From the NCBI RefSeq assembly GCF_020733635.1, contig NZ_JAJFZL010000001.1, positions 1,178,001-1,242,000 of the forward strand: a stretch of DNA of 64,000 nucleotides, in the 5' to 3' direction. Position numbers and translations under genes: made by a program. Origin of the DNA: Nocardia spumae (GTDB lineage Bacteria > Actinomycetota > Actinomycetes > Mycobacteriales > Mycobacteriaceae). This document shows positions 3,164-64,000 of the stretch, in pieces; position 1 is the first letter of the stretch; every line of letters begins with the position of its first letter. The notes below the pieces were generated by a model. It had not been told where the DNA came from. It ran no database searches and saw only the letters and a program-made list of their open reading frames with translations.

Positions 3164-6100
3164 TTAGTTGCCCGGTGAATTGCGTGGTGGGCCAGAGACT
3201 TTGCCGTCCTCGCGTGGGGCCTGGTGTTCTGGGTCGTGCGGATGGAGGTTGGTGAGGTCGTCTTCCGTGCCGGTATCGGCGCTCTGAGCTTCTGGTTCGG
3301 AGAATGCCGCGCGCAGCCGCTCATTGGCCGCCACGGTCAACTCCTGGGCGGTCTCCGGTGTGATGTGCAGCAGGCGGCGCACTGTGTCCAGTGGCATGTC
3401 GCCGATGATGTGGAGCATGACAACGGCTTCCGCCAATTCCGAATCGGGGAGATCCGAGAGCGCTTCCCGAATTCTCGCCATCATTGCCGCCGGCACCTTC
3501 ATCGGCTCCGGGGCGGGTGGATTCGCAACCTCACGTCGGGGTCCATGGGGTCCGCCGATCGGCTGTTCCAGTCTTGTGGTCTGAATTGTCGCCAATATCC
3601 GCATCTCGATAACCTTGGCCACCGGGAGGTCCAGCGCCTGAGCGATCTCGGCATCATCGGGAAACACGTCGGTTTCGTCGAAACGTCTGTTGCGGTATGT
3701 ATCGATGCTGACGAGCAGATTTCGTGTTCGGTTGTCCACGTTCGGATAACGGAGCTGGAAGTAGGTCTTGCGCAGGGCGAACTGAGCAGATGACCAAGCG
3801 GCGGCGCCGAAATCGCCTGGCGGAACGAAGTTGTTCGTCGCGACCAGTATCGCGGCACTGGCAATGTTGACGAGCTCGTGGTGCTCGTAGGACAAGTTGG
3901 ACCAGCGGCGTGCCAGCGCGCGTGCGATCCACATGTGTGGTTTAACGATCTGCGTCCTGATTATCCGCTCTTCCTCAGACCCCGGCCGGGCTGCGATCAA
4001 CTTCCAGAACAGGCGTGTCTCGGCCTCGTCGCCCGACGTCGCATCCGTGCGTAGGTAGAAGCGCCGCAACGCCTCGACCAGCGTGTCGTTCGGAATATCC
4101 AGAGCGTCTCGAAGCTCCCGGAGGAAAACGACACCGGGCCTATCGATCCCGCGCTCGATGAAAGAGATCGATTGCTGAACCCTGCCGGCCGGGGCGCCGA
4201 GTTCAGATTGTTTCAGCCCGCGATGAAGTCGTAATGCCTTGACCCAAGCACCGATAGATTCATACACGACCGGATCAGGAATCGTCTCCCCGGCGGGATC
4301 CATCCGATAGTCGTATCCCCACGCCTCGGCGAGTTCGTTCCATGGACCCGCTCGATGCAGTACATGACGGTAGGTCTCCAACATGGCGAGGTCGGTTCTC
4401 GGTGCGCGCGTTCCTCGTTCCTGGTGATCCACTGTCTGGTCGGAGAGTCCGAGCATACGTGCCGCGCCCAATTTTGACAGGTGGTTCACCCGCCGGAAGT
4501 GCGGCAGGTATGTGCCGAAAGAGTCAGCGATATCGAAACTGGGGAAAACCAACAGCTCGCTGGTGACGTCGGAAGTATTCTTGATGAAGTCGTCGCGGTA
4601 GAAGCGCCGCAGTGCCGCGGCCAGAATTTCGGTCGGTACTGCCAGCGAGTCCCGGAGCGTCAGCAATAACGTGACGTCGGGGTTGGTATCGTGCTGCTCG
4701 ATCTTCTTGACCGTCGTCTTACTTCTGCCGATCTGTGACCCGAACTCCTGCTGAGTCATTCTGTGATAGAGCCGGATCGCTTTCAGCCAGTCGTGCTCGG
4801 ATCCGAAGTCGTTCGGATCGGGGGCCGTTTCGCCGGCCGGGTCCATCCGATAGCTGTAGCCCCATGCTCGGGCCAAGTCGTTCCATGCGCCGGCGCGATG
4901 CAGTACACGATCGTAGGCTTGCAGCATGTCGAGCTCATAGGTGGTCGCGCGCACTCCCTCCTCGTGCTCCCGAATCGTATGCTTGGAGTATCCGAAGACG
5001 CGCTCGGCGTCGGCGATCGTGAGATTGTTCATGCGCCGAAAGCTACGCAAATACTCGCCGAGCGACTCGGCAGAATGCAGACTCGGGAATATGAGCGATT
5101 CTCTCGCCAGGTGGGAATAGTTCTCGGCGAGATCGTCGTATGTCACGCCGCGCGAAAGCGGAATCGCCTCGATTACGGCGTCGACAGCCTTTTTCGGCGG
5201 CGCCCCCTTCTCCCAAAGCCTGACGGCGTAATCGGATTTGCCGAGCCGATCGGCCAGCGCCGCCTGCGTCCAGCCCGCGGATTCGCGATGGAAGCGAAGA
5301 TAGTCACCTAGACGCTCATAGCCCTCCGGATACGCGGCTGCGCCGTCCTCGGTCAGCAGCTCGGGGAAATATCGCGCGACTTCGGTATATATCCCGCGCG
5401 CGCCCGGAACCCGGCGCAGCAACGCCCGCACCTGTTTCAGGTCCAAGCCCCCGCGGCCCTGTTCGGCCGCATCCCAGGTCCCCGGCGGCGCGTCCACCAA
5501 TTCATCCATCTGCTCGGGTGGCACTCCGAGATACCGCCGGGCCTTCGACAGCCACGCCGTCACCTCGCGGCCTTCCGAGCCAGGGAACCGGCCCACTTGC
5601 TGAATGGCCTTACTGCTCGCGGTGAGCCTCGCGCGGTCCAGCCACCGCTGCGCCTGTGCCGCGTCGAGGGAATGCATCTCGATGTACTCCGCGAGGCCCT
5701 GCTTGGGGAGCCCGGACCGATCTGCCAGTCGCGACTGATGCCACTGCACGAGCCGCTGCTCCTCGGTCGACTTGTGTGCTCCCCTGGACTGCGCGCTCGG
5801 ATCCCGCGGCGGTTCGGCATCCGCGGGTGCGTCCGTCGGATCGGTTGTGGGTTGCGAAATCTTGCGCCAGGGTGTGGGCTGGGCGGTCCGCGGGGTTGTC
5901 TCCGCGGCGCCGGCGGGGGCTGATACCGGTGTGGTCTGGCCCCACTCCTGTCCGCTGTCGTCGTCATGGTGGAACGCGACCGCGCCATCCGGGAGTCCGG
6001 CGAATCCAGGTCCGCCGACGCGTGGCTGCCGCTGTCGGCGTGGTGCAGGCAGATCGAGGGCGGCGTTCAGGTCGACGTTTCGGCGGTTTGCGGGTCGCGC

Positions 6101-9100
6101 ATGACGAGCAGGGTTCGGCTCCGGAGGAGCCGATGGCTTCGAAAATGTCACATCGACGAGGAGGTGTTCCCCGGCGGGGCCGATCAAATGGTTGATGGTC
6201 ACCTCGGTGAAGCCCATGTCACCGGCCATCTTTCCGGTGAATGTCCGGCGTGCCGCGTCCTCCGGGGATAGCTGCAGATCCTGTCGGCAGGCGTTGAAGG
6301 TGTCGATGTTGTCGGAAAATCTGTCGCCTACCGTCCACGGAGCGCGGATCGCACGCACGTCGGATCCGATGGCGGCCATCATGTCTCGGAACATCTGCTG
6401 GCCCGAAGGGGTGCCGTGCGCCGCCCCGATCTGGAACAAGAGCACACCGTCTAGATCCACCCACCCGTGGACGCCGTCGTACTCGCCGGCCTGGTAGGTG
6501 TTCGAGTAGGTGGCGATCGCGATATCGGCGTGGCGCGCGAGATACGCGGACGGTGTTTCCGGCGCGGGCACGGGGCCCCGCGGGAAGTAGCGTTCGCCCC
6601 ATACGTCATTCGCCAGGGCGCGGGCCGACGCCGGCGCTCCCCGTGAGCCGGACACTTCCCTGGGATACAGCTTCGCCAGGGTCGACCAATCGCTGTCTCG
6701 CAACGGTCCATCAATGGTGCGGGGCGGGTCGAAGTCCAGCGCTGTCGCGGCGCGAGTGGGCCGATCGGGCACGCCGTCGGGGAAGTGCTCGGGGAATCTG
6801 TCGGAGTCGTGTCGGCCGAGTAGTCTGCCCAACGCCTGCTCCGCCGCGTCCCGGTCCGCCGCCTCCACCGGCGAATACACCAGTGCCCGTGTCCGCGCCA
6901 CGACAGCGATCGACCCCGGCACGAATTCGTGGATCATGCCGTCATCGGTATTCGGATCGCGCACCTCGACGACTCTGCGGCCGTCGTAGACGAGCGTCCT
7001 GGCGCGGTCCACACCATCGATGAGCTCCAGCACCACTGCGGTTCGACCGGGGAGTCCATCGCGCATCAGCTGCTCGGCGATCTCGTCGGCCGAACCGAGG
7101 TCCCGCAACTCGGCACCCGGCTTGTCGAGTGCCTCGTATGCTTCCTTGGACAGCGCGCCCAGATCACGCGGCGGATCGGCCCGACCGTCGCCGTCCTCGG
7201 AACTATGCGCCGCGACGTGGCTCCGCGCGTCGTCCGTATCGCTCAGCGCCTTGGAATCTTCGGCTGGCTGATGCGGATCATCCTGCGCGACAATTGGTTG
7301 CGATTGTCCCGGTGTCACGTCGCCGATCGGATCGAGCAGCGGATCCGCGCTGGTGTCGGATTCGGTCGGCTGGGCCGGTGTCCAGTTGTCCCACCACTCG
7401 TCGAACTCGGTCTGCTGGGCCGGTGGCGACGTGAAGTCGTCCCACCAGTCGCCGAGACTGGTTGCGGGCGCAGCCCACTCCTCGTCGCCCGTGTCAAGAT
7501 TCCAGTCGAAGCCCGCGGCCGCGTCGGGTGGTAGTCCGTCGGCAGTCGGGGCACCCCGCTCCGGGGCATCGTCAGTAGGCAGCTCACCCAATTTCCGACG
7601 CATCTCACGCAGTACTCTTTCGGGCGAATCAGGGAACTGTGCCGCCGCCACCAGATACGCGTTGATCAGCTTCTGTGCGTCGGTTGCCTGGCGTCCGTGC
7701 CAGCGCACAGCATTGCGCCCTTCGGCGAAGGCCTCGCCCGGGTGGGGTCGGCCGTCCTCGAAAAAGCTGTAGGCGCTGAGTTCACGCCACAGCCAGGACT
7801 GAAAATCATCGAGGTCGAGGTTCTCGGGACGAGTTGTTCGGACGTACAGCCGTACCAGCTCGGGTAGGAGCGCCTTCCACTCGTCGTTCTGTAATACCTT
7901 CCACATATAGTCCGGCCTGCCGCGCGCCTGGAGTGCGTGGCCCAACTCGTGGCCGACGACGCAACGGACCGCTTGGTCGCGCGGCCCAACCAGGTGACCG
8001 CTGTCGACAAGCGATGCGACCTTGTGTCGGAGCAGGTCTCTGTTTATCGCATATCGTTCCGTCAGAGTGACCCATAGCTTGCCCGATTCCATGTATGTCG
8101 CGCCGATGGTGCCGTCGTCATCCCATTGCAAGACGCCGATCACCAACGGTAAGCCCATCCGGCCGAACTCCTCGGCGTGCCATCGAATTTCCTCGATGAA
8201 CTCCCGGACCGTTTCCACATCGACGTCCGCCATATCGAGACCCTCGGCCTCGATGCCCAAGTCGCGCTCGAGTTCCTCGAGCATCGCCTGTTTCGCCCGC
8301 AGCTGCTCGACCTGAATTTCTGTTGCCGGGCCGGGGAGTTCGGATCTGTTTCGCCGGTCCAACTCCCGAGCTCGATCCAGCAACAGTGTGCGCAGGACCC
8401 GCTGCCCGGCGGTCACGTTCGGCGCACCTCGTTCAACCGCCACGAACGACGTCACCAGGGCATGACGCGTATCCAACGTGCCGTCTTCGCGGAAGCTCTC
8501 CGCGTCGAACTGCTGCCGCAACCAGGCCGCGAACCCGGACTCATCCGTGCCATAGTGTTTCCGCAATTCGCCGAGGGCATGGGCCTCGGCCCGCCATTGA
8601 CCCGTGAACAAGAGTGCATCGGCAAATGCGCTGACAATGGCATTGTGCACCTCCTGCGTCGAAGCGTCGCCGTTGATGCTCAGCGCGATCGATTTCGCGG
8701 CAAGGTAGGAATCCGTTGTTTCCGCTTCTGCGACAGCGGTCGGACGGTCCCCGCTATCGAGTGGCTCGGCTGTGACGGTGGACAGGCCGATGGGGAACCG
8801 GCGCAGCAGATCATGGAATAGTCGAGCGACTTCTCGTGCGTGTTCGATCTTCAGGCCGGTACTGATCTCCAACCCTCTGCCGGGGTGTCTCGCCCCGAAC
8901 GCGCGCGCAACATCCGCGGAAGTGGGATACCGTCGCACGTCGAATTCGGCTCGGGAACCCAGATCTTGAAACCGCTCGATGGCTTCGACGAGACGCCCGA
9001 TACCCGATGATTCGGCTGTTTCTCGGCTCAGACGTCGCAGCTGCGCCAACGGATCACGGGGATCATCGGTCGATTCATCGAACCCCCACCGCCTTTCCGG

Positions 9101-12100
9101 TGCACCGAGGAGCCTGTGCAAGTCATCGTCGAGAATCCGCCGCCCGGCGATATCCGTGTGCGCGGCCATATCGGCGGCTATCCGATCACGGATCCAGCCC
9201 GTCAGCTTCGCCGGTTGCCCGGCGCTGACCACCCTGCGCCAAGTCGCGTCATCCAGGTTGAACAACTCGAGCTGGATGTCGCCGACCGCCGACAGCAGCG
9301 GCTCCCACAGTCGATCCCCTCCCGGGTCGGCCATCCCGAGCAACGCCGCCACCCGCGCACGCGCCCGGTCGACCTCGTCCTTCGTCGCCGGCGGCTGTCC
9401 CCACTCCACGTCGAGTGCCGCGGGTGCTTCCCCGGACAGCGCTCCCGGATCCTGCTGCGCATCGGCCCGACCGTCGCCGTCCTCATTGTCGTACCGTCCT
9501 GATTCCGCCGAATTCCGCAGTGGGCCGAGGACTTTGCCGTCCTTGCGTGGGGCCCGCTGTTCCGGGTCGTGTGGATGGAGGCTGGTGAGGTTGTCGTCTT
9601 CATCGGTGGTGAGGTAGGCGACGAAGGCTTCCTTGATGTTGGGGTAGGTCTGTTTCCAGGTCTCGAGGGTGCGGACGCGGGGGATGCGGTCGGGATCGCT
9701 GGGGTCGGTGTGGGGGTCGTCCGGGTTGGTGATGTTGGTGTCGAAGATGACGATATTGCCGCCGGGTTTGTTGTCGGTGTTGGTGATGGTGAGGGAGTGC
9801 ATTTTCTTGCCGTCGTCAAGCAGCAAGACCGCGGTGTCGGCTCCGTCCTCGAGGTTTCGTACCTTCTCGATGGTTGCGGCGACGGGGTCCTGGGTGTCGG
9901 AGTCGATTGTGACGAGTTGGGTCGCGATGGCTCGGCGAAGGTGTTCGGGGCTCTTTTGCCATTTCTTCGGTGTGGTTCCGTTGTCGAGGCCGAGGGCCCA
10001 GGTTGCCTTGGCTGTTTGGTTGATGCAGTCCAGCAGTTTCCGGGCTTTGAACATCCGGTAGATCGACCAGCCCGCGACGGTGCCGAAGGTCGCGGCCATG
10101 ATTTCGCCGGTGGTTTGGTGTCCCAAGAGCGTCAGTGCGCCGCCGGCGAGCACCGGCCCCAGCGCGAGTCCGCTTCTCGTCGTCATATCGCTGAGGGCCT
10201 TGATTCGGCCGCGCACCGCCGCCGGGGTCGTCCTGTTCATGTAGGTGACGAGCGGCATTTGCGCCACACTGAGGACCGCGTAGGTGCTGGCGAAGCCCGC
10301 CGAGACGACCCAGGGGTTGGGGAAAGCCGCCGCGATCGTCGCGGGCACCGCCACACCCGCGGCCAATCTGGTCGCGAGCAATGAATTGAGACTTGCTTTC
10401 CCCCACCATCTTTCCGGTATCAGACTCCCGGCCGTACTCCCGATCGCACCGCCCATCGCGCTGAGCGACAGCGCAGCTCCCTGCTGCCACCCCGAAATGC
10501 CGGAGTCGGCGATCAGCAACGGAAGGGCTACTGTCTGGGCTCCCAAGTACACATTGCCGATAGCCAGGTTGGTGATGAAAGCCCGCCGCAGCGGGAGGTC
10601 CTTCATGGTATTCGCGCCCTCGGCGATCGACTCGCGCATGTGGACCCAGACGCTCTTCGATGCATCCCGTTTCGGCGCGGCCGGGAAGGCCGGCATCCTC
10701 GACAGTGCCGCCAGATCCACAATGCTCGTTCCGACATTGATGAGGGGAGCCAGCCAGGTCCCGGCTTTCAGTACCGCGGGCGCGAGCCCCCTCCCCAAAG
10801 CTCGGGCGAGGTTGAATTTGACGAGGTTGAAACGGGTCAGCCCGTACTGCGCATTGCCGACCATTCCGATGACCGCGCTGCCGATGGCGTTTCCGTAGAT
10901 CGAGGAGGCCGCTGATCCGGCGAGCGTCGTCCCGATGAGTATGGGGGCGGTGTACGCCGTTCCGGATCCGAGGGCGGCCGCTGCCGCCAGGTCTGCTGCT
11001 ATCACCCCCGCCTGGCTGGCCATCAGCAACTTCTTCGGCTGTGTGTGGTCGGTCAAATGGCCCGCGAGCAGGGCGAGGGCGATTGGTGTCAGCTGGGTGG
11101 CAAAGCCGGCGGCGCCCGCCATTCCAGGTCCGCTGTGTTCCGCGAGGTACAGCATCAGCACCATTTGCGCGAGTTCGGAACCGACATCGTTGATGAGCCC
11201 GGCGCCGAGACGGATGCCGATGTCGAGGTCGTTGCGAACCAGGTGCAGCAGCGAATCGGTGGGCTGCGTCTGCGCGGGGGGTTGGTTCTCGGCGGGGGCG
11301 GGGTCGGAACTGCTCGTGTCCTTGGGAGTTTCGTTCGCGGTGGGGTCGGAACTGGTCGTGTCCGTGGGGTTTTCTTCGAGCACCGTTTCGCCAGTGGCGG
11401 GCGACAGTTCGCCGGCCGTCCGATCGAGCGGCGGCCGCCCGGACGGCTGGTCTGCGACGCCCAGCGGGTGGACGGCCGGCCGTTGTGCCGCGAGATCTTC
11501 CTGATCCGGGGTGCTCGCGGTGGGACTGTCGGCAGGTGTTGGGGTGTGCTGGGGCTCGGGTACGGCGGGTTCGTCTGGGGTGGCTGGTTGTTGGTTGTCG
11601 GGGAGGTTGTGGAAGAACAGGCCGCCGTGTTGGAAGGGGGTGAGGCGTTGTTGTCGTCTGGGCGCGACTCGGTTGCCAGTGGCGTCGTCGAGTTGTGCCA
11701 TGGCGGCCAGGTGTTCGGCCAGGACTTCGTCGGCGATGTCGAGCAGTCGTTGTGCGGTGGCTGTGGTGTCGGCAGGTTGTGGTTCTCGGGCGGCGCGGGC
11801 GTGGACTCTGGCGGTGAGGTCTCGGGCGATTCGTGGGTTGCCGAGTTGGGCCATGAGTCGGTGGTAGACCTGGCTGTTTTCGGTATCCGTGCTGGGTTCC
11901 GTGACAGCCGCCGGTTCCTCGGAATCCGGCCGCTCCGCGATGGGCGGCTCGGTCGGGGGCATGTCGCGTCGCTCGGCCTCAGCGGTGTTGTCTTGTTGCG
12001 TGGGTTGATCGGTGGTCCATGGTGTTTGTGCGGATCCTGCCGTGGCTTCTTCGAGTACGGCGTCGATTGCGGCGAGCGCGTCGGTGCTGCGCCGTACTGG

Positions 12101-15100: not shown

Positions 15101-18100
15101 GATCCGGTTGTGGACGACGGCCTCGCCCTCGGTCGGTGTCAGAGTGTCGACCTCGCCGGCCACCACCGATTCCGCCTCGGCCTCGTTCGTATCGAGAGCG
15201 CCGTCCTTTCGGCGGATGCCGTAGGAGCTGAACTGCACCGCCATCCATGCCCGCAACTCTGCGATGTCATCGGTGCCGTAGGTTTCCTTGAAGTATTTCG
15301 TGACCGCCTCATATGCGCTCGGGGCGTCGATGGGCAGCAGGCTGCGCAGACGATGCGCCAATTCATGAATGGCGAGGCAGTAGTACGCGCGACCGAGGTC
15401 GACGCGTAGTCGTCTGGTATCCGCCTGCACCACCGCATCGGCGTACATCACCGTCGGCGCGGCCAGCCACAATTCGTTGAGCTCGATGTCGTCGGTGGAG
15501 GCATGGCCGAATTCGGCGGAGTCGCCGGGCGCGATCTTGATCTTGGATAGTCCTCCGAGGATCGGGAACCGGGCGAGCATGTGCCGTATGGCCGCGACGA
15601 GCTGACCGGCGACCTCCGCCGTGATGCCGGGGTTGTCGATCCCGATGAGTTCGACGCCGTGGTCGGCCCGCAGTGCGGCGACCAGCGCCATCTTGGCGCT
15701 TTGTTCGATCGGTGTCACCGGGCGATAGGCGGCCGTGAGTCGCTTTCGGCCGTGATACTTCTGGGTCGATGCCCGCGAGGCGGTCTTGGTCAACAGGTCG
15801 TACAGCACCTGCTCCCCGACTGATGCAGTGACCGGATCGTGCTCCATGGCCGAGAAGGCTCCCGCCAGCGCGGCGGCTACATCCAATTCTCCATCGCGAT
15901 CGAGTCCGTAGTCGCGGAACTCGCCGGCATGCCAGGCGTAAGCGTCGCGCGGAGACCATCGCCCCGGACCTCGATGACTGCTCTCGTGGTGGTCGACGAG
16001 CGTCAACTTGGCGTCCCGTGTCGCGGTCAGCCACGTCGCGTTATCGAGTGCGTAGCCGAATTCACGTCGGGTCAACCCGAGGATCGGCTCCTCGACGGAC
16101 CCCACTGCGCGCCCGCTGTTGATCATCGCGGCCCATGTCGGAGCGAAGAACTCCGGGTCGGCTGCGAAGGAGTCGGACAATGTGATCGACCGCGTGTAGG
16201 GATAGCTCGTATCGGTTCCGGCAACATGGTCGCTGGTGGCGAACGGACGTCCCGCCGGGGTAGGACCGAAGCCGACCTGGAGCAGTTGGACATGTGGGTA
16301 TTTCGTCAGCAATTGGTGTATGGACCGAGCGAGCTCACGAACGACTTCCACTGTCACGTCAGGCAATTCGAGCCCGAACATGCGGACGGCATGGCTGCGC
16401 CACAGCTGCGCGGCGACCTCGGCGCCCGTCGTGCAGGATTCGAACGGATCGGCCACGGTCCGATCGAGCGCATCGGCCGCGACGACCGCATCACGTGCCG
16501 CTCGAGCCAGGCGCCGATTCTGCTCACGGAGTTCCTCGGGATAGCCGGGATCGTCGAACGGCAGTCGCTGCTGTGGGGTGGCGATGCGCCAGTGGTGCTG
16601 GAGCCGCCCGTTGTGGATTCGGCGGCTCAGATCCTCGAGGAATTCGCCGGTCGAGATATCCGTTCCGGTATCCAAGGCATCGAGGACGATCGGTAGCGCG
16701 ATCTCCGCCAGACGCAGATGTTCGGACAGGACATCGCGCGGAAGATCCTGGAAGTTCGTGGTGGCCAACGGAACTCGGCTGCCGGCGTGGTGGGCATCGA
16801 TCCATGCCGTGTCGGTCGTTGTGCCGAGAACGGTGTCGTATCCGACGGTTTCGCCGGGGTGTTCGGCGGCCACGACCTCGAACAGTCGAGCCGCCAGCCC
16901 GACGAGTACCGATCGCGGGGGGTGTGCGCGAGCCTCGCTGCTCACCTCCCCGGGGACAGGCACGGAATCATCTGCACCCGAATCGCTCTCGCTGGATTCC
17001 TGATCGCCGTCGGCCGGGTCCACCGGCTCCGCGGACTCGGGATCGGCAGTCGTCGGGCGCGCCGGGTCTGCCGGTGCGGCGGGAGTCTGTGAGCCGCTGT
17101 GCGCTTCGCCGGAACCTTCGTCGGGTGACGTCGCGTCGTTGCGCGGCGGTCCGGTGACGGCGCCGGAGCGGGGCGTGGGCAGATTCTCATCGTGCTCGAA
17201 AATGGCTGTGAGCGAGCCGTTGTCATTCTTCATATAGGCGACATACGCCTTGTCGAAATTGGGATGGGCCTGGCTCCACTTGTCGCTGGTGCGAACGCGA
17301 GGAACTCGACCGAGGCCGTCGACGTCGATGCCGCCGATATTCGTGTCGAAGATGACAGCGGTCCCGGCGACATTGGTGACGAGGTAGGCGTGCAGGCTGT
17401 CACCCTCACCGTGGTCGACGAGGACGACGGCGGTGTCGGCTCCGCCGATGTTGTTTTCGACAGCGTGGACAACGTGCGCGAGAGGGTCGGCGGCCTCGGG
17501 ATCGAATTGTGTTTCCACCAGCTGGGTTTTGATGGCGTTCTGCAGGTGGTTCCATTGGTCTTGGCCGGGCTGGAGCGAGTCGGTGACGAGACCGAGCCCG
17601 CGTAGGGCCTCGATCACCTGATTGATGCAGTCCTGCAGTCTGCGTTCGCGTTCGGTAGCGGCGATCTCGCGGTCGAACCGTGCCTGCCATGCGGCATCCG
17701 ATTCGGTGGTCACTGCCGGATACGGCGTGCCCTCGGTCAGATCGGACAGACGCTGGTGCAAGAAGTCCAGGTAGACCTCGGCTATGGATTCCCCGGGTTC
17801 GGGACCGAAGTGGCTGGTGTTGGTCAGATCGTCGGCGCTCACGCCTCGCATCAGATCGGCTCGATACAGCTGCACGACGCGGTGGATCGCCAAAGCATCG
17901 GCGGTGGCGACCTCATCGGACAGTTCGGCGGCCATTCGTCGCAGCCGGGTAACCACAGACCGGCGATGAATGGCAGTAGGCAGTTCCTCTCTGATCGGCA
18001 GCCGGAGTCGGTCGACGAGATCGTTGAAAAGCCACCCCAGTAGTACATCCAGATCGAAGCGTTCGGGAACGGTGTTCGAATCCGGAGACGAATGGGCGAT

Positions 18101-51100: not shown

Positions 51101-54100
51101 CGGTGCGGGCCGGTGTCCGCGGCTCGGTTCGTTCGCCGGGTTGTCGGGGCCGAGGGATTGGTCGGGTGTCGTGGCGGTGGCGGTGGCGGTGGCGGTGGCG
51201 GTGGCCGTGTTGTCGAGTTCTTCGATCAGGATGCGCCCGGAGGCGTCGATCACCACTCGGCCGGGGAAGTAGCCGCCGTCGGGTGCGACCATGCTCTTGA
51301 CCCAATCCTCTGCCGAGGCGGAGGCATCGGCGAGCTCCTCGTCGAGCGACATCACCGTATCGAGGGCGTTCGACACGGCATCGAGCAGCTGCACCGTGTT
51401 CTGGGTGTGGGCCCGCAGCGCTGCGTCGCCGACTCGTCCACGAAGTTCCCATGCGACCAGATCGACCGCGGCGGCGCCGTTATGAGCCCACTCGGCGAGA
51501 CCCAGCATGTCGACCAAGCCGCTGTCGAGCACCGAATCGCGAATCCATTCCAGCTCGCGTGTTCGTGCGCGGGTCAGGTCGCCCATGCGTTGAATGTCGT
51601 CGGCGAGCTCGCCGGTCGCCACATGCTCGAATTCGACGAATCGAGTCCCGGATCCGTCGTCGACACCGGCGATGACATCCGGATTGTCGCCGAGCAACAT
51701 TCCCAGTTGCCTATCGACCAGCCGCGCGAATTCATCCAGCGGGAAAGGCACTCCCTGGGGTACCGCGTGCATCTGCCCGGTCGGCGACATGAGATATTCG
51801 GCTCTGTCGTCCGGGTGCTGTGTACGCCACTGCCGTGCCGTGGCCGCAGCGGTCCCGTAGGCAGTGATGGCGGCGCGTGGTCCCGATGGTGTGGGGATGG
51901 GGCCGAGGTCGGCGGCTCTGCGCTGCGCGACCGCGTTTCGGCGGGTGGCGTCGCGCCATATTTCAACCGGAGTGAGGCCCCGCAGTAGTGCCTGGAGTGC
52001 GTAGGCCGGATGGGTGAGGTCGGCGGGAGCGTTCGCGCCGAAGGCGAGGTTGGCCTCGGCCAGTGCTTCGGAGGGATTGAATACGAGGCGGTCGCCCAGG
52101 CTGGGGATCGGTTCGCCATCCGGACCGACAGTGTTGGCCAGCTGATCCCGCCTGTCCTCCTGGATCGCTGAGAACTGCCAATCTTCGATATTGGCCGACC
52201 ACACCGCGAACAGCTCCGATAGGGGGTATTTGCTGTCCGGATAGGCGTGCTCCAATTCGCTCAGATCGATATCGAAGCCGCGTTTGTCCTTCGGTTGTGT
52301 CAGCCAGTGCTGAAAGACGCTGTACTCGACGTCGTCCGCATTCGGGTATTTATATGCTTGGCTATATCCGATGAGCTGGTCCAGCCATTGTTCGAAGCTG
52401 GTTTCGGCCGGCAGGGACGGGAAGTCGCCGAATTCTTCCGAATCCTGGTCCGTCCAATCGCCGAAGTCTCCTGTCCGTCGGGCCGATATCGGGTTCTTCA
52501 GGCTCTGGAAATGGCTGAACAGGAATCCGAATGCTTGTTCTTCCAGCGACCTTTCCTCGAACCCGGGCGCGTAGAGTCGCGCGACAGGGTCACGAAGATG
52601 GACCATCTCATGACGCAGGGTCGCGTAGGCATAGTTCCCGGCAGGGTCCAGTAGGTGGCCTGCGGCCACCGGTGGGACGGTCTTTTCGTCTCCGTTCGAC
52701 GCCGGGAAGTGATCTTCGTTGATGAACACCATCCGGGGATTTCCAGCGGTGTTCAGCCTTCCGGCAGATGCCGAATATTCGTTCAATGGCACGACGGCGA
52801 TGAAATCCGGTCCGTAGTCCGGTCGTTCGTCGAGGCTGTCGATGACGGCTTTGCGCTCGGCCAGTGACGAGTCGACGGTGATTCCGTGTTTGTACAGTTC
52901 GAGGATTTCGTCGTATTCGTCGATGATGGCGTTGCGGATCCACAGTGCGGTGGTGACCGACACTTTCTCCAGGCCCAATACCTCGATCCCGTAGGTATCG
53001 AAGATCTCCCCGGCTATCGCCCGATTGATATCGCGCGCGGTCTGTTCGTCATAGTCCGGGAGATCGGCCGGCGCGGTGCGAACGATCGGTTGTCCGGGAT
53101 CGGCCGGTCCGGTGACCTCCTGCGACCGGTGTTCGGGCGCGACAACGGAATCGGCGGGCGCGACGCGAGGTGCGAGACCGTCGGTGGTCGAGTCGAATTC
53201 GATGGTATAGGCGTAGTCGACCTGCTCGTAGGCCGGCTGCCAGGACTCGGTGCCGTCGTCGGCTTCTGCCGGGCGAATACGGTGGTTGCCCTCGATGAGG
53301 TTGTCGGCGACGAAGATGAGCCCGTTGATTCTGGTAGCCAGGTAGGCGTGAGCCCGGCCCTGTCGACCGGCGGCCCGATCCTCGTTCTGGCCGACTACCA
53401 CCACGATGGTGTCGAGAGTGGGGTCGGCTTCGAGCTTTTCGATGGCGAGTCGAGCGGGGTCGTCGATGGCGTCGAGCGCGACCGGGGTGAGACCGGCGGC
53501 AAGGTGATCGGCGAGGTCCGCGGGCAGAATACGGCTGGGGTCGGGGTCGTCCTCGGCCTGGTCGGCGCCGAGCGCGTTGGTCATCCGCGAAATCCACGGC
53601 ACGCAATCGAGCGCCGCTCGCGGAATCCCGGTCGGTTGCGGTCGATCGGTGCGCGCGCCCAACGTGGCCATACCGTTCGACAAATCGCGCAGCACCGCGA
53701 ACAACGGCATGCCGAGTGCGTGGGCGATCTCCGCGGCGGTTCTGCCCTGGGCCCAGTGATCGAGCACGGTGAGCTCGGGTCCGGTCGGCTGTTCGGCTCG
53801 CTGCAAGGCGGACCGATTGCCGGATCGGCCCGGGGGCCGCTCGCCCGCCGGTCGCGGATTCAGCTGGTCGTCGATATCCGACAGCACGCGCATGAGCTCC
53901 GGCAGTGGTGCGGAACGCGTTGCGGCCGAGGGAGGTGAGGCGACGATGGCGGCTCGGGTGCTGTGCAGTATGCGGTCCGCGTGCTCGGATTCGATGGCCT
54001 CCCAAACCTCGGCACCGAAGGGGCCGAGCACCGAGACCAATTCCAGCAGGTTGTCCCGGGTCATGCCCTCCGCGGGCCGATCGGCTTCGGCCAGCTGGCT

Positions 54101-57100
54101 GATGTGCAGCATGAGCGCGGCGATGGTCGCGTTGCGGCGGGAGAGTTCGCGATCGAACAGCCGGATTTGCGCCGCTGCCCTGGCGTGAGCCAGGCGGAAC
54201 GACGAGAGATCCGGTGCGGCAGTCGAGTTCAGTATTCGCGTGAATCGGTCGTACTCGTCACGCCAGCGATCGCGCTCCGATCGGGCGAGTTCGCGCGCGT
54301 CCAGCTGCTGGGCGATTCGCTGTTCGATCTCCGCGTAGGTGGTCGGCCTTGCGACATCGAGGCCGATACCGTGTTGCCGCAACAGCCGGTCGAACTCCGC
54401 CGAGATATCGGCGATGAGCTCCCGATCAGCGGGGGAGAGCTCCCCGAGGTCGTCCTCGACCTCGGGCTGTGCCACCGCTGCCGAGCGGAGCAGATCGGCG
54501 GTGACCGTGCCTGCCTTGTCGACTTGGAGGTAGTAGAAATCAACCTGAATTCCCGACTGCGCCAGCGTGTTCAACGTGGCCGCGGACAGGAACGTATCCA
54601 TGTCCGCGTACGGTGACAACACCGCCAGCCGGTTGCCGTCGAGGGTGGCCCAATTGCCGATCCGCTGGCCGGGCAGTTCTGCCAGCAGCCGCCGGCCCGC
54701 ATCGGCGGCGGCCTGTATCCGGGTGGTGCGCAGCGTATCGGCGCCCATTTCCAGCGCCGCCCGCAACCGGGCCTGATCCGTCTGCCGGGGCGCGGTCAGC
54801 AGGTCCGAATCCGGCGCGAGCGGATATTCCGCGTCCACTTCTCGGCATACCGCGGCGAGGTGATCCGAGGCGATGCGGATCAGCTCACCCCACACGGGCG
54901 CGACGGTGACGGTCTCGGTGTGCGCGACAGCCGGGATCGTCGCCGAATGTGATGGTGTGCCGCTCTGTTCGTCGGCGGCTCGAATCGCGCGCCACGAACT
55001 GTTGCCGATGTGATCGCGGGTTTGCCACAACAGATCTTGCTGTTGCCGAACCGACGCCCGGTCCGACTCCGGCCGATCCTGCACCAGCACTCGGCCGGCG
55101 GCGTCCACCCGCACCTGCTGGGTGGTGACGGTGAGCGGGTGCTGCGTCGAAAGCTCGGCGAGCAGCGGGGGAAGCGCGCTGCGTTGGCCCGGAGATTCGA
55201 ACACCTCGACCCGGCCGTCTCCGGCCACTCGCACATTCGTGCCCAGCGATGGGCCACCCAGTGCTGCCGCGACGGCGTCGACCGCCAGGATTTCGGCTCG
55301 ACCACGGCGTGCGGCGGAGCGCACGCCGAGAACTTGCAGCTCGTCACGCACGTCGTGGATCGCACGTGTCAAAGCGCTCAGCGCATGTCGAATGGCATCG
55401 GGCTGGGCGGTGCGCGTGGCGTCCGCGATCCGACGCTCCAGGTCGGAGACATCCAGGTCGGCTGTCGCCGCGCCGGCGCCCACCCAGGCCCCGAGACCCA
55501 GCGCCGCCGCCAGCCCGTTGTCGGCGGTGAGCAATTCGCGTACCGGAGCCAATCGCGAGGCGCGCGTTCGCGCGAGCTCTGCGACTTCGTGCACCAGCTG
55601 AGCCAGCGGGCCCACCGGGGCGATATCCCATTCGTGGAATCCCGCTGGCACCGTGGGCAATCCATCACGATCCATGATGAGCTGCCGGTCCACCAGCAAC
55701 GGGATGTCGTCGAGGTCGCCGCGCGTCGCGCCGGTGATATCGGGAACCACGTCGGAGACATACTCACCCTGGCGGATTCGCTCCGCCAGGGCCGCGAGAA
55801 ATCCGTCCGGGGAGATACTGGGGCGGAATTCGGTGGCGGCCGGGATCTCACCACGGGCAGCGGCGAAATCGAGCCGACCGCGTCCGGGGTTCCCGGCGAG
55901 GGCGGCGGCCCATCGGCGTTCGGGTTCGCGGGCGAACGCCTGCGCGACGGTGAACCCGTTCCGCAACGCGTAGAGCGCGTATGAAGGGTGCGTGGGGTCG
56001 CTGAGACTCCCATGTTCGTGCGCCTCGGCCAGCGCTTCCTCGGGATTGAAGACGGGCTGGTCGCCCAGCGCCGGGACCGACTCGGGCAGGAACCTGTCAT
56101 GTTTCCGGTCGGCTTGCTCGAGCCTCGCCCTGGTTGCCGGGTCGAGATGGTTCAGCCACGCGCGATAGATGTCGCTTCTGGTGACCGTCCGAGCGCCGTT
56201 GCCATCGACCGGTTCGACGCCGCGTTCGCGCAGCCAGTCGTCGAGTGCGTTGCCCCCCGGCACTGTGCGGCGGTCGAATTCGAGCAGCCAGGCATCGAAT
56301 GCGGCGGTCAGATAATCGTCGTCGCGTCGCTCCTTGCGCTGCCTGCTATATCCGGCCAGCTGATCGATCCACGTATCGAACGACATATCGGCGGGGATAT
56401 CTCCACGCCGGCGCAGACCGGTGAAGTACTCGCTCAGATACGGGAACGACCGGCGCTCCATCCCGTCCTGATCGCTGTCCCTACCAGGCGTTAGTGGGTT
56501 CGCGGTCTGCACCTGTGCGTGAACCAGCTCATGGCGCACGACGTCGTATGCGGCGTTTCCGGTGCTGCGCTGCGTGTGCCCGCTCTGAACGCCCTTCTCG
56601 AAGGAGTCCTGGAAGAATTCCGAATTGCAGAAGTAGGTCTCGTTCAGATAGATGACATGCCGGGATTCGTCCACTGCGGTGCCGATGCCGCCCGACTGCC
56701 AGTGGAACGCCTCGAATTGGGCCATCTTCGGGAGGCCCCTCGGCGCGACGATAACGGCATCCAGCCGGAGGTTCGGGTCCTCCGCCATCGCATCGGCGAT
56801 CGCGTTTCGGATCGACAAGGCAGATTCCACGGTCATGCCGAGTTTGTCCATGCCGATGACTTCGATGCCGAACGTCTCGAAGATCTGGGCGGCGATGGCT
56901 TGGGTGGTGAGAGCGGTCGCCCCTGCCACGGTGCCTGGTGCAGCGGATCGACGCCCGGGGGTGCTGGAATAGCGGACGCTGGGGAGGTAACCGACAGTGA
57001 CGCTGGCAGACCCGAGGTCGGGAGCCTGCGCGAGTGCCTTGTTCCGGTCGGGCTTTCCGGTGACAGCTTCGGATCCGCCGGGGGAAAGCGCGGTGCCCGC

Positions 57101-60100
57101 ATCCTCGGCGGCCGCGCGCCGTCCTGGGGCGATGTCGGTGGACACGGATCGTCGTTCGCCGGCGAGGATCTCCTCGGCGCGCGCGTCGAGGGCGAGAACC
57201 AGCTCCGCCATGGCCTCGGCCACTGTGGCGGCGTCGAGTGCCTTCCGGCCGTCGCGAAGATACTGTCCGACCGACGCGACGGAAACACCCATGTCCGTTG
57301 CCGCCTCGGCCATGGTCTTGCCCCGCGAGATGAGAAGGAAGGCCAGCCGCTGCCGCGGCTGCAGCGCGCGCAGCGGGTCGCTACCGGTTCGTGGTGGGGC
57401 GATGAGCCCCTGTCGAATTCCCTCGGCGATCAAGATCGGCCAGTCCGGCTGGACACCCAGCGTCTCGGCCAGGGAGCCGCGTACGGAACGCAGCTTTGTA
57501 CGGCCCATCGCATCGGCGAGGGCCGCCGTATCGGCTCCCGTGGCCAGTAGTTCGAGAAGCAAGATCTGCTGCTCGCGCATGGTGGGAGGACCGAACGCGT
57601 CCGTCCCGCTGGAGAGATCTTCGAGAGCCGGCAATTCCCGAATCTCCGCGAGCGTTCGTTGCAGACCGATCACCGCGGCGCGAACCAGCGCTGTGGGGCG
57701 GGCCCGGCCGGAGCCGGCTTTCAGGAGGTCGCGGAGTGCCGTGCGGTGTAGTTCGGCGAGCTGCGCGAAGGCCCGATTGAACTCATCTGTTGTCGCATTG
57801 GTGATCGTCGTGTCGAAATAGGCGGCCTCGGTGGGGTTTTCGGCGCTCTCGACGGCGAAGGTGTGAACAGCTCGCCGCAGTTCGATGGTGTCGCGGTGTT
57901 TGGGCAGGATGGCGCGAGTGTGGTGGTCGAGCCATTGTTCGATGGTGCGGTCGCCGATATCGGCGTAGTTATCGACGGCGGCGGTGAGGATTTCGGCGGC
58001 GATATCGGAGGCGACTCGTCTCTCGGCAAGTTGCCGTTGCAGCCAGGCCAGCAGATGGCGGCCCTGCGCGCTGTGCGTGAGCGCGTCGAGTGCGCGGTCG
58101 CGATCGCCCGCGGCGAGATGTTCGGCGATGGCGCGGCTGTCGACCGGAGGCCGGACGTCCAGAGCCTGGATGAGCTTCGCCATGGCGGCGGCCTCGGTGG
58201 CCACATCCAGAGCCGCGAAGACCTCACGCCGCAGTCGGTTCACGACACTGACAGAGAATCCGAGCAGTCCGGCTATCCGAGCCTCGGACAGTCCCTGCGC
58301 CCGGTATCGCACTACCCGCAACTGATCGTCGGTCAGCAATCCGGTGGTCAGATCGGTAATCCGATCCTCCGGTGGCGCGATATGCCCACCGCGGATGCCC
58401 TCGATAACGAGCATATGGTGCTGGGCCGAGGTGCGCAGCGCGTAGGCGAGCCCCTTGATCAGGTCCGCGGGTACCACCTTGCGACGCTGCTTGCGCAGCG
58501 CGGATCCGATTTCGTGGCTCTTGGCCCCTTCGGACAGGAGCCGGAGCACCTGATGCTGAATGTCGCTCAACACCACCGGATTCGGCAAGCGGTGCGGGGC
58601 GGATTCGGATCGGGTGGCGGCGGCGGCGTCGGCGGCCGTGCCCCGTGCGAGCAGGTCGATAGCGGTGATCGTCAGCGCGACGGCCTGCGCTGCCGAATGT
58701 ACGTTGAGCCGCGTCGATATCTTCTCTAGCTGGCTTGCCACCGTCCCGCGGGACGTGCCGAGTTTGTGCGCGATTTCCGCGGCGGTGAACCCGGATGCCT
58801 GGTGGGAAAGAATTGCGATTTGCTGGCGCGAGAGTACTTCCTCGAGGTACTTCGCAACCACGACCCGGTCGAACGGCGGGTGGATCAGGCCACTGCGAAC
58901 ACTCGCGGCGACGATCGCCGTCCGTCGATATGGTTCCGGCAGACCCAAAATCTTGGCCAGCGCGGCTACCCGGTTCTTGACGGTGCCGACCGGGATACCC
59001 GTTCTGGCGGCGATCGCTTCGTTGGTCAGCCCCGCCGCGATATCGGCCAGCAGCGCCCGCTGCGGTACGTCGACGCGTCGAGTGTCGACTCGGACGGTTG
59101 CCGACTGGCGGCGCCGCTCGGATATCGCGTGTGAAAGTATCACCGCCGCTTGAAGTCTGGCCGGATTCATCGCCGGCACCGGCATACGCCGCTCGTGCAC
59201 GCCTCGATATGGTTCGAGGTGTGCGCGCTGCCGCTCGGTCAATGTCTTCAGACCCGCGGTGAATTCCGCGGTGGTGACATCGGTCAGGGCGCCGTCGATC
59301 TGCTCGGATTTCTCCGAGCCAGGGATGGCCGCGATCGCTTGCCGGACGGCGTTGCGGAAATTCGCTGCGGCGAGGTGTTCGGGCAGGATGGCGCGTGTGT
59401 GATGGTCGAGCCATTGTTCGATGGTGCGGTCGCCGATATCGGCGTAGTTGTCGATGGCGGCGGTGAGAATCTCGTCTACGACATCGGATGCGACTCGGTG
59501 TTCACCGGGGAATCTTCCGGCCGACCACCGGGCCAGGATTATGCCCGGCTCGCTGTCGGCCAGCGCACGTTTGGCCTGCTCGACACTTCCGCTCTCGAGA
59601 TGAGTGGCTATGGTGCCGTGCAATGCGACCGCGGCACGGGCACCGGCCCCGCTTGTAGCGGGCCTGTTGACATCGGTGCGGGCATTCGGGCCGAGCGGGC
59701 GTTCCGGGTCCACCGCGGTGACGAGCGCGAAATCCTCTGCGCTGCGGGCTGGTTTGGCGATCCAACTCTCGTCGAGCGGCAGATCCGATGGGCCCGGTGC
59801 CGGTCCCTGTCGACCCGTCGACGTCGACGATTCGCTCGTGGCGGTGGGCTCGGTGGGGGAGCGCCGGGGTGCGGAGAGGGCGGCTTCGCCCGAACCCCGC
59901 GGGGGCCGGACGTCGTCGCTTCTCCGCGGCCCGGGCATTCCGGCGTCGCCCGGCCAGTCCGGGCCGGTGACGTCGATCGCACCCGCGTGAATACCCGCGG
60001 TCACCAGCCCCACCATGGTTCGTATGCCCAGTTTCCGGCTGATATCGGCGATGTGCTCGGCGACCTCGGCCTCGGGCATCGCGAGGATATCGGCGACCGC

Positions 60101-63100
60101 GGCGGGGCTCAGACCGCGCGCGGTGCGGTCCAGAACCGCGCGCTGGCTGTCCGGAATAGCCACCGCCCGTTCCAGTTTCGGTACCGGAAGGGCTGTGAGA
60201 TCGACATCGCCGCGGTGGATGGCGGCGGCTACCGTGGCCGCCGGGGTCGCCGAGTTCAGCTTGTCGGCGATCCGGCCGATGGTCTCGCTCAGCTGCTGGG
60301 GAGTCCATCCGAAGCGGGCGGCGATCTCGGTCTCCGGCAGCTCCTGTGCGATGAGTTCGACGACCACGCGTTCGGCGGGCGTGAGCGGGGCGCCGGCGCT
60401 GGGTACCCGTGCCATCATCGCGACCGACCGCGCCAGCCGGCGCAGACCACCGGCGGCCAAGGTACTGGTCACCGCGGAATTCCACGGTGTTTCGCTGGGC
60501 TCGGAACTATTCCGGATGTACATCGCCTGGTCGACGGACAGTCCGCGCTGGAATCGCATCCGCAGGGCGGTCCGCTGACTGTGCGGCAGTTGTGCGAGGC
60601 AGAGGTCGAGTACGGCCGCGGGCGCGGCGATCAGGGCGGCGGCCACGGGATCGGATTCGTCGACACCTTCCAGCTGCAGATAGGCGCTGACCGCTCTGGC
60701 GCGCAGGAGATTCAGATCTCGGACGGCATTCGGGTCCAGCATCGAGTCGGCGACCCACCCCCAGATCGGATCAGGCTGTGCCGCAGTGTCATCGGCGTCG
60801 TCCGTCCGAGTGCTCGCAGCTACCTCCGGATCGCCGGATTCCGGAGCGGCCGGGGATTCGCCGTCGTTCAGCAGCGATTCCACCTCGGCGGCGTCGAACG
60901 GTGCGAATATGGCGTTCGTCAGTTCGGACAGCGCGCGGCGGTGCTGCGCGGTCGGTTCGGCGCCGAGGTGCAGTGCGGTGAGTGCGTCGGTGGCCGCCGT
61001 CGTATCGGCCAGTCGGCCGAGTCCGTCCAGCAGCGCGTTGTGGGCTTGCTCGACCAGCCAATTCGCGGTGCTGTGGCCCTCCGGTATCGCCCACTGCTCG
61101 TGATGCGCGGTAAGGAATCCGGCGAGCGTGACGGCCCGGACCAGCTGTTGTGCCGGTTCGGTGAGGGCCGCTCCGCTCAGGTCCACACCGAGGGTGTGCG
61201 CGATCTGCTGCACTGTCGCCGGGGCGTACTGACCCATCAGCGTTCGGAACGCCGCGGGCTGCCCGTGCCGGGCCTGCTGCCAGGTCCGCTCGGAGGTGCC
61301 GGACTCGGGTGATTGCTCGGCCCGCCCCGCCGAGGGTACGGGCGCCGGTTGTGGTGGCGGATGCGCCGGTTGGATAGGCGCGGTGCCCTGATTCACGACC
61401 GGTGGTGCGTGGGCCTGATAGGTGGTCCCGTGCCGGGACGACAGCAGATCCGCCTCGACCGCGGCCTTCATGGCCGGAACGGCTTGGTCCCGAAGTACGG
61501 CTTCGGCCGCCGTTTTCGCCTTCGCCGCCGCCGCCACCTCGGCGTGGGCTTCGGGTGTGGCGTGGGCCTGCAGCGCTTGCTCGGCGGCCAGGTGATTCGC
61601 CGACGCCTTCTGATACAGCACGACCTGTTGGACCACACCGTGATCGGCCACTCGGCCTCGGAAATCCTCGGGTGACACGTAGTGCACCGCGGTGCCGGGA
61701 GTGCCCCCGTTCTCCCTGTCGTCACCGGAGCCGCTGCGTCCGGCCCGCCCGTCGATCTGCTCGTTGACTCGTTCCGAATAGGCCGGGCCGCCACTGGCTT
61801 TGACGTCCACTCCGCCCCGCTCGATCGCGGCCGCCGACGGCGACGGGTCGGCGCCGCGGCTGCCGTCCTTATTGGTGATGTAGATGGTGCCGAGGTCGCC
61901 GAACTCCTTGATCTTCTTGATGACCAGAGATTCGGCATTGGCGTTGCTGCCGCCGTGTTCGGCGTAGAACTCGGCATCGACGACGTCGAACTTCAATTCG
62001 AAATGCTCGCCGTGCTGTTGCTTGCCGACTTGGTTGATCCAGTCGACCAGGCCCATTCGCCCGGACTGCTGATCACCACGGATCTCTCCGTTGTCCAGCA
62101 TGACCACCCACTGGGGCCGGCCGGTCTGCCGGAACTTGCCGGTCTTCTCGTCGTAGACGACTTCGGCATCGCGCAGAATGTCGTGGGCCATCTGCTTCAG
62201 TTTGGACTGGGTACTGTCGAGGAATATCGGTTCGGAAACTTTGAGGTTCGAAGCGTAGAACCGGGGCATCTCCGGAACGGGGCCGATCCCGAGTTCGTCG
62301 TAGAGCGCGTTCTCGACGTGCTTGAGTGTTCCGGAGAGTCCGGACGGTTCGAACAGCATCTCACTGCCGATCAATTGCTGGGCCGACATCCGCATCGAAT
62401 GATGTTGTTCGGCACGGACATCGATGCCCTCCTTGAGTTCGACGAACTGCGCGACGCCCTGCCAGCGCACCTCCGACGATTTCTCCCGGTTCCACATCGG
62501 CTTGTCATTGGTGTCCGAGGCCAGGATGCCGATCTTGCGGGTGCTGGTGGGCTCGGCGTCGCCGGTTTTCGCCGCGTTGGGGTCGGCCGGCACCTTCTCC
62601 TCGAAAATGATGTAGTGCGTGCCGCGCTCGACACCCCAGCGGGCATTGGCGGCGTGCGCGAACAGCGCCGCCTCCTCCGTGGTGATCGGCTCGCCGGGGG
62701 CTTTCTCCAGTTTGGCGATAGCCGCGTCGGTGGTGCGGGCCGACCACATACCGCGGGTATTGTCCGGGCGCGCGAAATCCGCTGCGGTGAGGCCGTGTTC
62801 GCGCTCGGCGGTGGTCAGGCGCTCCCACAGGGCCTGCAGTCGTGCCACCTGCTCGGGCGATGCGTTCTCGGACGCGCCGGGAGACAGAACACATTCGGAG
62901 TTGCCGTCGAAGATGGTGTCGAATTCGTCGATGGTGTGCTTACCGGCGGGGAACGGTTCGAAGCGATCGGCCAACCCGTGATCGGCGGCCGCCAGGTCGA
63001 GTTGCCGCTTGATCGCGTCGATCGAGGGCTTCTCGTTCATCCACTGGCGCAGCGCTTCGATTTGGGCCGGATCGGCGCCATGGGCGGCCAGCTTGTCGAC

Positions 63101-64000: not shown

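What the first reader, a model, noticed from the sequence alone, without database searches (positions are those of the whole stretch)
3164..64000. A single open frame of more than 20,278 codons
The reverse frame is open from the right edge to a TAA at 3166-3164, with identifiable folds throughout and intact catalytic motifs across 50 kb. Very few bacterial proteins exceed 20,000 aa. An unconstrained frame of this length would not stay free of stops and keep enzyme motifs.
Basis: seen in the sequence. Interest (0 to 1): 0.95.

Follow-up and report, generated by a model that had tools for sequence, protein, structure and literature searches.

The report
Giant 21,158-residue Nocardia effector-like protein
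One unbroken bacterial gene encodes a protein of about 21,000 residues that starts like a type VII secretion substrate, carries its own SecA-like motor and then a long chain of recombined enzyme and DNA-binding modules, and it belongs to a family of giants found in many Nocardia species.

Summary
The frame is open from the TAA at 3166-3164 to the window edge and continues to an ATG at 66640: 21,158 aa (A). A tandem paralogue of 11,776 aa (B) starts at 2978. It is not an NRPS. A begins with a WXG100_2 domain, then a SecA-like ATPase whose motor residues are invariant in 9 of 9 aligned members. Then follows a mosaic: helix-turn-helix/sigma-r4 arrays, five copies of an HExxH metallopeptidase-like module, an M3/Dcp-like peptidase, two MFS-like domains, a lipase-like domain. 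About 75% of A matches modules elsewhere in A or in nine other family frames. 68 of 118 Nocardia-genus genomes carry the SecA-like module, at least 57 in an open frame of 5,000 codons or more, the largest 33,513. Best reading (0.6): a type VII-linked giant multi-effector protein, growing by cassette accretion, with an in-cis motor. The usual WXG100 and YbaB neighbours are missing at this locus. Secretion, processing, target and expression are untested. A new variant of the actinobacterial giant toxin-like proteins noted in 2012.

The parts
3164..64000 (-). Part of giant ORF A inside the window (residues 881-21158); the gene continues to an ATG at 66640, outside the window, where a WXG100_2 domain (residues 7-135) and a hydrophobic segment (106-124) lie
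61361..63550 (-). SecA-like ATPase module (residues 1031-1760); Walker A G-x-G-K, D-E-x-D, motif V R-G and motif VI Q...R..R invariant in 9 of 9 aligned members
57236..60610 (-). Helix-turn-helix array 1 (GerE/LuxR, sigma70 r4, HTH_23, HTH_24)
55676..56863 (-). HExxH metallopeptidase-like module M1, divergent copy (33% identity to the reference copy)
51671..52963 (-). HExxH metallopeptidase-like module M1, reference copy (residues 4560-4990)
45266..47110 (-). Helix-turn-helix array 2 (GerE, HTH_31, sigma70 r4)
43718..45010 (-). HExxH module M1, copy (58% identity)
41609..42649 (-). Helix-turn-helix array 3 (three GerE stretches, sigma70 r4)
40025..41314 (-). HExxH module M1, copy (64% identity)
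37352..39397 (-). Peptidase_M3 / peptidyl-dipeptidase Dcp-like domain, almost full length, HEFGH (over the Pfam cut-off, far below the NCBIfam equivalog cut-off)
33290..35161 (-). Helix-turn-helix array 4 (GerE x3, GntR, sigma70 r4)
31625..32644 (-). MFS-like domain 1, low hydropathy
30974..31060 (-). Internal copy of the protein's C-terminal tail, at the end of MFS module 1
29549..30820 (-). HExxH module M1, copy (54% identity)
26618..27157 (-). Abhydrolase_8 (lipase-like) domain with GHSYG
24821..24925 (-). zf-HC2-like stretch
21668..27775 (-). About 2,000-aa region (residues 12956-14991) matched in pieces in G002, G010 and G000b; contains the Abhydrolase_8
15311..16387 (-). Second type of HExxH module (two HExxH sites)
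10154..11197 (-). MFS-like domain 2, low hydropathy
9506..9592 (-). Internal copy of the C-terminal tail, 72 of 87 bases identical to the terminal one
7928..8530 (-). HExxH module related to the one at 15311-16387
4091..5314 (-). C-terminal HTH_31/XRE array with sigma-region-like matches, related to the end region of B
3173..3259 (-). C-terminal tail, also found internally twice
1..2978 (-). Start of tandem paralogue B (11,776 aa; ends at window -32352); residues 1-2268 are 51% identical to residues 1-2230 of A

Best explanation
A is a giant multi-domain effector-type protein of a type VII secretion (ESX)-linked family. Shown: one open coding frame; an N-terminal WXG100_2 domain plus a hydrophobic segment; a SecA-like module with conserved ATPase residues; a chain of modules shared, duplicated and reshuffled among family members; WXG100 and YbaB genes beside other members and beside most other WXG100_2 genes of this genome; three EccC loci in the genome; relatives with the same SecA-like module that carry toxin-type domains. 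Inferred: the WXG100_2 end targets the chain to an ESX machine, with partners supplied in trans at this locus. The SecA-like module uses ATP to unfold or thread the long chain across an envelope membrane. The downstream modules (peptidases, lipase-like, membrane and DNA-binding) act as cargo in a target cell, probably after cleavage. The protein grows by adding cassettes at its C-terminus and recombining modules with paralogues.
For: Frame and coding. WXG100_2: 42.9 bits, cut-off 27; 48.7 bits. SecA: the nine-member profile matches solved SecA at E 3.6e-36 in three collinear stretches; Foldseek 3.5e-21, the 36 best rows all SecA; invariant motor residues. Family: 68 of 118 genus genomes with a match better than 1e-20, at least 57 of 118 in open frames of 5,000 codons or more (row listing truncated). 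Partners: upstream of the giant in G007 and G010 a WXG100 and a YbaB gene over cut-off; in G008 a YbaB gene, and a divergent WXG100-like gene just below cut-off. In the own genome 5 of 7 WXG100_2 places have a YbaB match within 600 bases, 4 of them over cut-off. EccC: three loci over cut-off. Relatives: 15 proteins, several with ART, Tox-PL, deaminase, OTU or calpain accessions or names. Shuffling. Tail copies. HExxH: 9 in A, shuffled mean 0.83, maximum 5.
Confidence: 0.6

Rival explanations
1. An intracellular giant scaffold or regulator: helix-turn-helix, sigma-region-like and MFS modules act inside the producer, organising DNA or transcription, and the WXG100_2 end is only a helical bundle.
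For: HTH/sigma-r4 arrays are the commonest recognised cargo of A and related HTH modules recur in B, G007, G010 and G002; sources name several relatives LuxR, GntR or XRE-type regulators; this locus lacks the usual WXG100/YbaB neighbours.
Against: Relatives with the same SecA-like module carry ART, glutamine deamidase, OTU and deaminase accessions; WXG100 genes stand near the giant in G007, G008 and G010; HExxH modules and a lipase-like domain in A.
Confidence: 0.2
2. A domain graveyard: a frame kept open by selection on the N-terminus, accumulating captured but inactive modules.
For: MFS-like domains have low hydropathy (best windows 1.57 and 1.62); several family hits are below Pfam cut-offs; 11 of 30 pieces have no Pfam family; about 25% of A has no match.
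Against: Zero stops where about 489 are expected; codon-position bias over the parts with homologues (with its selection caveat); conserved HExxH and a later Glu in nine aligned M1 copies; in B, HGDANDGN and HNDLYNSN in the two kinase-like domains printed and GSS in the amidase.
Confidence: 0.1
3. A surface-attached giant adhesin or cell-wall protein.
For: Surface attachment is a common role of bacterial huge proteins (PMC11573180, abstract and passages).
Against: No adhesin repeat family in the Pfam scans of A; a signal peptide was not tested. Recognised modules are enzymatic, membrane or DNA-binding.
Confidence: 0.06
4. Assembly artefact.
For: None found.
Against: The contig is 6.98 Mb of a 7.07 Mb genome in 5 contigs, 99.95% complete; giant frames of the same family in other genomes, including a single-contig one; internal repeats are diverged (under 70% aa identity except short ones), so collapse is unlikely.
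Confidence: 0.02

Closest known systems
Actinobacterial giant multi-toxin proteins of Zhang et al. 2012 (PMC3482391, passages; example SACTE_5178, 13,652 aa)
   Same: Over 10,000 aa, several peptidase and other effector domains in one chain, actinobacterial
   Different: The passages I read name lethal-factor-like peptidases, caspases, OTU, ARTs and MCF1-SHE in these proteins, not a SecA-like motor or HTH arrays; A is longer and in Nocardia. Not compared by sequence here
Public proteins P0001-P0015, named e.g. WXG100-like domain-containing, ADP-ribosyltransferase, toxin glutamine deamidase domain-containing or LuxR regulator; 12 of 15 name Nocardia
   Same: Homologous SecA-like module (35-63% identity) in proteins of 5,553-7,893 aa; 8 of 15 list WXG100_2 and several list HTH families
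   Different: Shorter (the search admits 5,500-17,500 aa only); several carry toxin-type domains that A was not found to have
Nocardia brasiliensis 15,203-residue calpain homologue (PMC4631099, passage)
   Same: A Nocardia giant of the same size class with an effector-type domain
   Different: Not compared here by sequence; the passage treats it only as a calpain homologue
SecA preprotein translocase
   Same: Fold and motor residues of the module at residues 1031-1760
   Different: Fused inside a giant; about 16% identity in the structural alignment; NCBIfam SecA scores are far below the equivalog cut-offs
CpnT-type proteins (recalled, not tested)
   Same: A WXG100-like N-terminus ahead of an effector domain (recalled)
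   Different: Far smaller and without a SecA-like module (recalled)

Membership tests
WXG100_2 / type VII-linked protein | WXG100_2 domain over the curated cut-off at the N-terminus | tested here: met
   A 42.9 and 48.7 bits, cut-off 27. B: none at E 0.01, but 39.9 bits
WXG100_2 / type VII-linked protein | WXG100 or YbaB partner gene next to the effector gene | tested here: not met
   None at the A/B locus, although G007 and G010 have both over cut-off, G008 a YbaB, and 5 of 7 WXG100_2 places of this genome have a YbaB match within 600 bases
WXG100_2 / type VII-linked protein | ESX machinery in the genome | tested here: met
   Three EccC loci over cut-off
WXG100_2 / type VII-linked protein | ESX-dependent secretion | not testable with these tools
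   Needs an experiment
SecA motor | Walker A, DExD, motif V, motif VI residues | tested here: met
   Invariant in 9 of 9 aligned members; PDB profile E 3.6e-36
SecA motor | SecA fold | tested here: met
   Model pLDDT 75.2, pTM 0.69; Foldseek 3.5e-21 to a SecA-SecY complex, TM 0.60
SecA translocase proper | NCBIfam SecA equivalog cut-off | tested here: not met
   27.2 bits against 800 for TIGR00963: SecA-like, not a housekeeping SecA
SecA motor | ATP-driven protein translocation | not testable with these tools
   Needs biochemistry
Polymorphic toxin / giant multi-toxin | Several effector-type catalytic domains in one chain | tested here: met
   M3/Dcp-like, five M1 HExxH modules, Abhydrolase_8; activity untested
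Polymorphic toxin / giant multi-toxin | Adjacent immunity gene | tested here: inconclusive
   None recognised by eye downstream of B; the small ORFs were not searched
Lethal-factor-like metallopeptidase (module M1) | HExxH with a downstream Glu in the lethal-factor peptidase fold | tested here: inconclusive
NRPS/PKS | Condensation, AMP-binding or PP-binding domains | tested here: not met
   None in A or B; they are found in the neighbouring + strand ORF

The most novel reading that the evidence does not exclude
A self-propelled secreted giant: the in-cis SecA-like ATPase is a travelling motor that threads the protein's own 19,000-residue cargo through the envelope or into the target cell, and the HTH/sigma-region arrays are delivered nucleomodulins that reprogramme or block transcription there while the peptidase modules cut the chain free.
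Probability: 0.2. Interest if true: 0.93.

Novelty: new variant of a known kind. Interest (0 to 1): 0.72.

Why it matters
It places some very long bacterial proteins in the genus Nocardia as a testable family with a common SecA-like module, often behind a WXG100_2 head, and freely recombined cargo. It raises two sharp questions: how a ribosome and a secretion machine handle a chain of 21,000 to 33,500 residues, and why a secretion-type head would carry its own SecA-like ATPase and DNA-binding arrays.

Tried and rejected
NRPS/PKS, a usual cause of giant actinobacterial frames: no such domain in A or B. Peptidase_M6 probe of the own genome: no match and no control rang, uninformative. Internal separate genes: no excess of SD-like sites before in-frame starts. 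Standalone relatives of module M1: none at E 0.001 among the 7,998 candidates sharing most words (candidates limited to 0.55-1.75 times 431 aa). Sequence profile of M1 against PDB: marginal matches only, best E 0.0083. Foldseek with the M1 model: nothing better than E 1.6. TAL-effector rows rest on a stretch of about 40 residues scoring at most 7.2 bits per repeat and were set aside. The first self-comparison gave no rows and was redone in pieces. NCBIfam gave SecA-type, SMC-type and Dcp/oligopeptidase names, all far below their cut-offs. A single-sequence scan of GTDB contigs confirmed one locus of 32 pattern matches. Paper searches on Nocardia giants or SecA with WXG100 (2 of 2 papers listed, 20 of 39, 20 of 510, 20 of 88, 20 of 135, 10 of 12) showed no listed title or abstract start that describes this SecA-headed family; unlisted papers, subscription journals and preprints were not seen. 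The 2008 'Think big' paper was seen only as cited in PMC11573180.

Full report
OBSERVATION. The reverse frame is open from the TAA at 3166-3164 to the right edge, 20,278 codons. The window lies at G000 contig 1, 1178001-1242000, of a 7.07 Mb, 5-contig, 99.95% complete genome. With the flanks the stop-to-stop frame ends at window 66715 (21,184 codons). The start that aligns with the paralogue's start, behind the same GGCGAGGTAGGG, is the ATG at 66640, so A has 21,158 aa. Directly downstream, B starts at 2978 and runs to -32352, 11,776 aa.

REAL CODING SEQUENCE. From base composition about 489 stops are expected in this frame (log10 P of none about -215); the other five frames contain 138 to 492. 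GC3 is highest in 41 of 42 blocks of 500 codons in A and 21 of 23 in B. Over 20,577 codon pairs at 45% aa identity or more, differences at positions 1, 2 and 3 are 0.315, 0.257 and 0.490. All 17 listed 1,000-residue blocks change most at position 3; five blocks (residues 3001-4000, 6001-7000, 9001-10000, 16001-17000, 17001-18000) had too few pairs to list. Choosing pairs by protein identity favours this pattern, so GC3 and the absence of stops are the stronger evidence. In-frame starts with an SD-like tetramer are not enriched: 43 of 959 against 125 of 2,432 control codons.

HEAD. Residues 7-135 match WXG100_2 (48.7 bits), with a hydrophobic segment at 106-124. There is no W-x-G in the first 160 residues. 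Residues 1031-1760 are a SecA-like module. An alignment of nine members (A, B and seven other frames, one of them in the same genome) keeps G-x-G-K, D-E-x-D, R-G and Q...R..R without exception. The profile matches solved SecA at E 3.6e-36 in three collinear stretches. The predicted structure (mean pLDDT 75.2, pTM 0.69) matches SecA at E 3.5e-21, TM 0.60, and the 36 best rows are all SecA. NCBIfam SecA models score far below their equivalog cut-offs, so this is SecA-like, not a housekeeping SecA. The motif names are recalled knowledge of SecA/SF2 ATPases.

CARGO OF B. SecA-like, HTH arrays, DUF218 (below cut-off), MFS, three APH-type kinase matches over cut-off, part of Bac_transf, LacI and a strong Amidase match. 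HGDANDGN and HNDLYNSN stand in the two kinase-like domains I printed, GSS in the amidase.

MOSAIC EVOLUTION. A and B share their first 2,230 residues at 51% identity, and then modules in different order. Of A, 39.6% is repeated within A and 70.6% matched in nine other family frames; together 75.2%. The longest unmatched stretch is residues 9026-10064, which includes the Dcp-like domain. A tail of about 28 residues at the very C-terminus recurs at the ends of both MFS modules, with 72 of 87 bases identical for one and 52 of 87 for the other. I read these as former C-termini: new cassettes were added behind old ones. Among the ends of the other frames no match is as strong: G000b has a weak internal one (E 0.01), and G010, G011 and G096 weak ones elsewhere; the ends used for G002 and G009 are cut sequence, not true C-termini. 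So the inference rests on A alone.

FAMILY. In 21 genomes (13 of the genus including the own one, 8 of other genera) the single-sequence search rang in 9, all in the genus. With the nine-member profile all 118 genomes drawn from the genus match at E 0.001, because other SecA proteins match at about 1e-11. By my count from that table 68 of 118 have a match better than 1e-20. The listed rows place such matches in open frames of at least 5,000 codons in 57 genomes, 10,000 in 38, 15,000 in 18 and 20,000 in 4 (the row listing is truncated and three of the 68 have no listed row, so these are lower bounds; open frames run stop to stop). Many frames are shorter, for example 2,931 codons in G011. I checked the largest: G096, single contig, 33,513 codons, a GTG at the third codon and a WXG100_2 match below cut-off (22.5 of 27 bits). 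Its GC3 is highest in only 55 of 67 blocks, and only 12% of A matches it. In 150 genomes across the order 4 pass E 1e-20: the own one, one more of the genus, and two of another genus and family, in frames of 16,768 and 9,259 codons. A search admitting proteins of 5,500-17,500 aa found 15; 13 have a source name, 12 of these name Nocardia. Eight of 15 list WXG100_2; accessions include ART, Tox-PL, deaminase, OTU, calpain, GNAT, amidase, Peptidase_M3 and many HTH families (meanings of accession numbers partly recalled). P0011 has WXG100_2, SecA_DEAD, Tox-PL, ART and deaminase accessions and the SecA motifs by eye. The genus name comes from these records and from L015, Nocardia jiangxiensis, 65% identical in the SecA module.

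GENOMIC CONTEXT. I looked at the flanks of five other family loci (G002 and G009 not examined). Upstream of the giants in G007 and G010 stand a YbaB and a WXG100 gene, all over the Pfam cut-off. In G008 a YbaB gene lies directly upstream and a divergent WXG100-like gene (26.5 bits, cut-off 27.3) further off. G000b has an upstream gene with a GCWGDD stretch but no Pfam hit; in G011 neither was seen. In the own genome there are seven WXG100_2 places, all over cut-off. Five of the seven have a YbaB match within 600 bases (four over cut-off, one below), and one of these, the frame of 5,424 codons at 6175738, also has a WXG100 match beside it. The two without are A and B: no YbaB match lies on that part of the contig, and the nearest WXG100 match, below cut-off, is at 981264, over 160 kb from B. 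Three EccC loci exist at 5.42, 6.11 and 6.14 Mb.

MECHANISM. Shown: a single coding frame, a type VII-type head, a SecA-like ATPase with conserved motor residues, shuffled cargo with peptidase and lipase-like motifs, and the WXG100/YbaB neighbourhood of related genes. Inferred: export by an ESX machine with partners in trans here; ATP-driven threading by the SecA-like module; release of modules by cleavage; action on another cell. Rivals: intracellular scaffold/regulator, domain graveyard, adhesin, artefact. The HTH-rich cargo and the missing partner genes at this locus are the strongest points against my reading.

KNOWN WORK. Zhang et al. 2012 (PMC3482391, passages) describe actinobacterial proteins over 10,000 aa with lethal-factor-type peptidases, caspases, OTU, ARTs and MCF1-SHE, the longest in their set 13,652 aa. 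PMC4631099 (passages) mentions a 15,203-residue Nocardia brasiliensis calpain homologue. PMC11573180 (passages) surveys huge proteins, does not contain the word Nocardia in its main text, and cites Omnitrophota proteins as among the largest reported. PMC12419801 (passages) mentions gigantic Omnitrophota proteins. PMC3751702 (passages) names an NRPS as the longest CDS of N. cyriacigeorgica GUH-2. In the listings of my searches I saw no paper on a SecA-headed WXG100 giant family. I file it as a new variant of the actinobacterial giant toxin-like proteins.

Noticed in passing
window -72998 to -48201 (+ strand; contig 1105002-1129799): An NRPS frame of at least 8,266 codons (Condensation, AMP-binding, PP-binding), open at the left end of what I fetched.
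   Followed up: partly
G096:C1:2509810-2610351 (L044-L049): A related frame of 33,513 codons without a stop in a single-contig 6.4 Mb genome, larger than the finding itself.
   Followed up: partly
30974-31060, 9506-9592, 3173-3259: The C-terminal tail of A recurs inside it at the ends of both MFS modules, like fossil C-termini.
   Followed up: partly
31625-32644 and 10154-11197: MFS-like domains with unusually low hydropathy; lowered hydrophobicity is, from recall, a trait of secreted membrane effectors.
   Followed up: partly
G000:C1:5221829-5247022 (L034, L035): A third giant of 8,397 codons in the same genome, with the SecA-like module and five HExxH sites, but a head not among the WXG100_2 matches.
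   Followed up: partly
G184:C4:6251197-6252849 and G171:C2:69125-70774: Family members in another genus and family of the order, in frames of 16,768 and 9,259 codons.
   Followed up: no
G000:C1:6175738-6176976: A WXG100_2 frame of 5,424 codons with a YbaB and a WXG100 match beside it, without a listed SecA-like match.
   Followed up: partly
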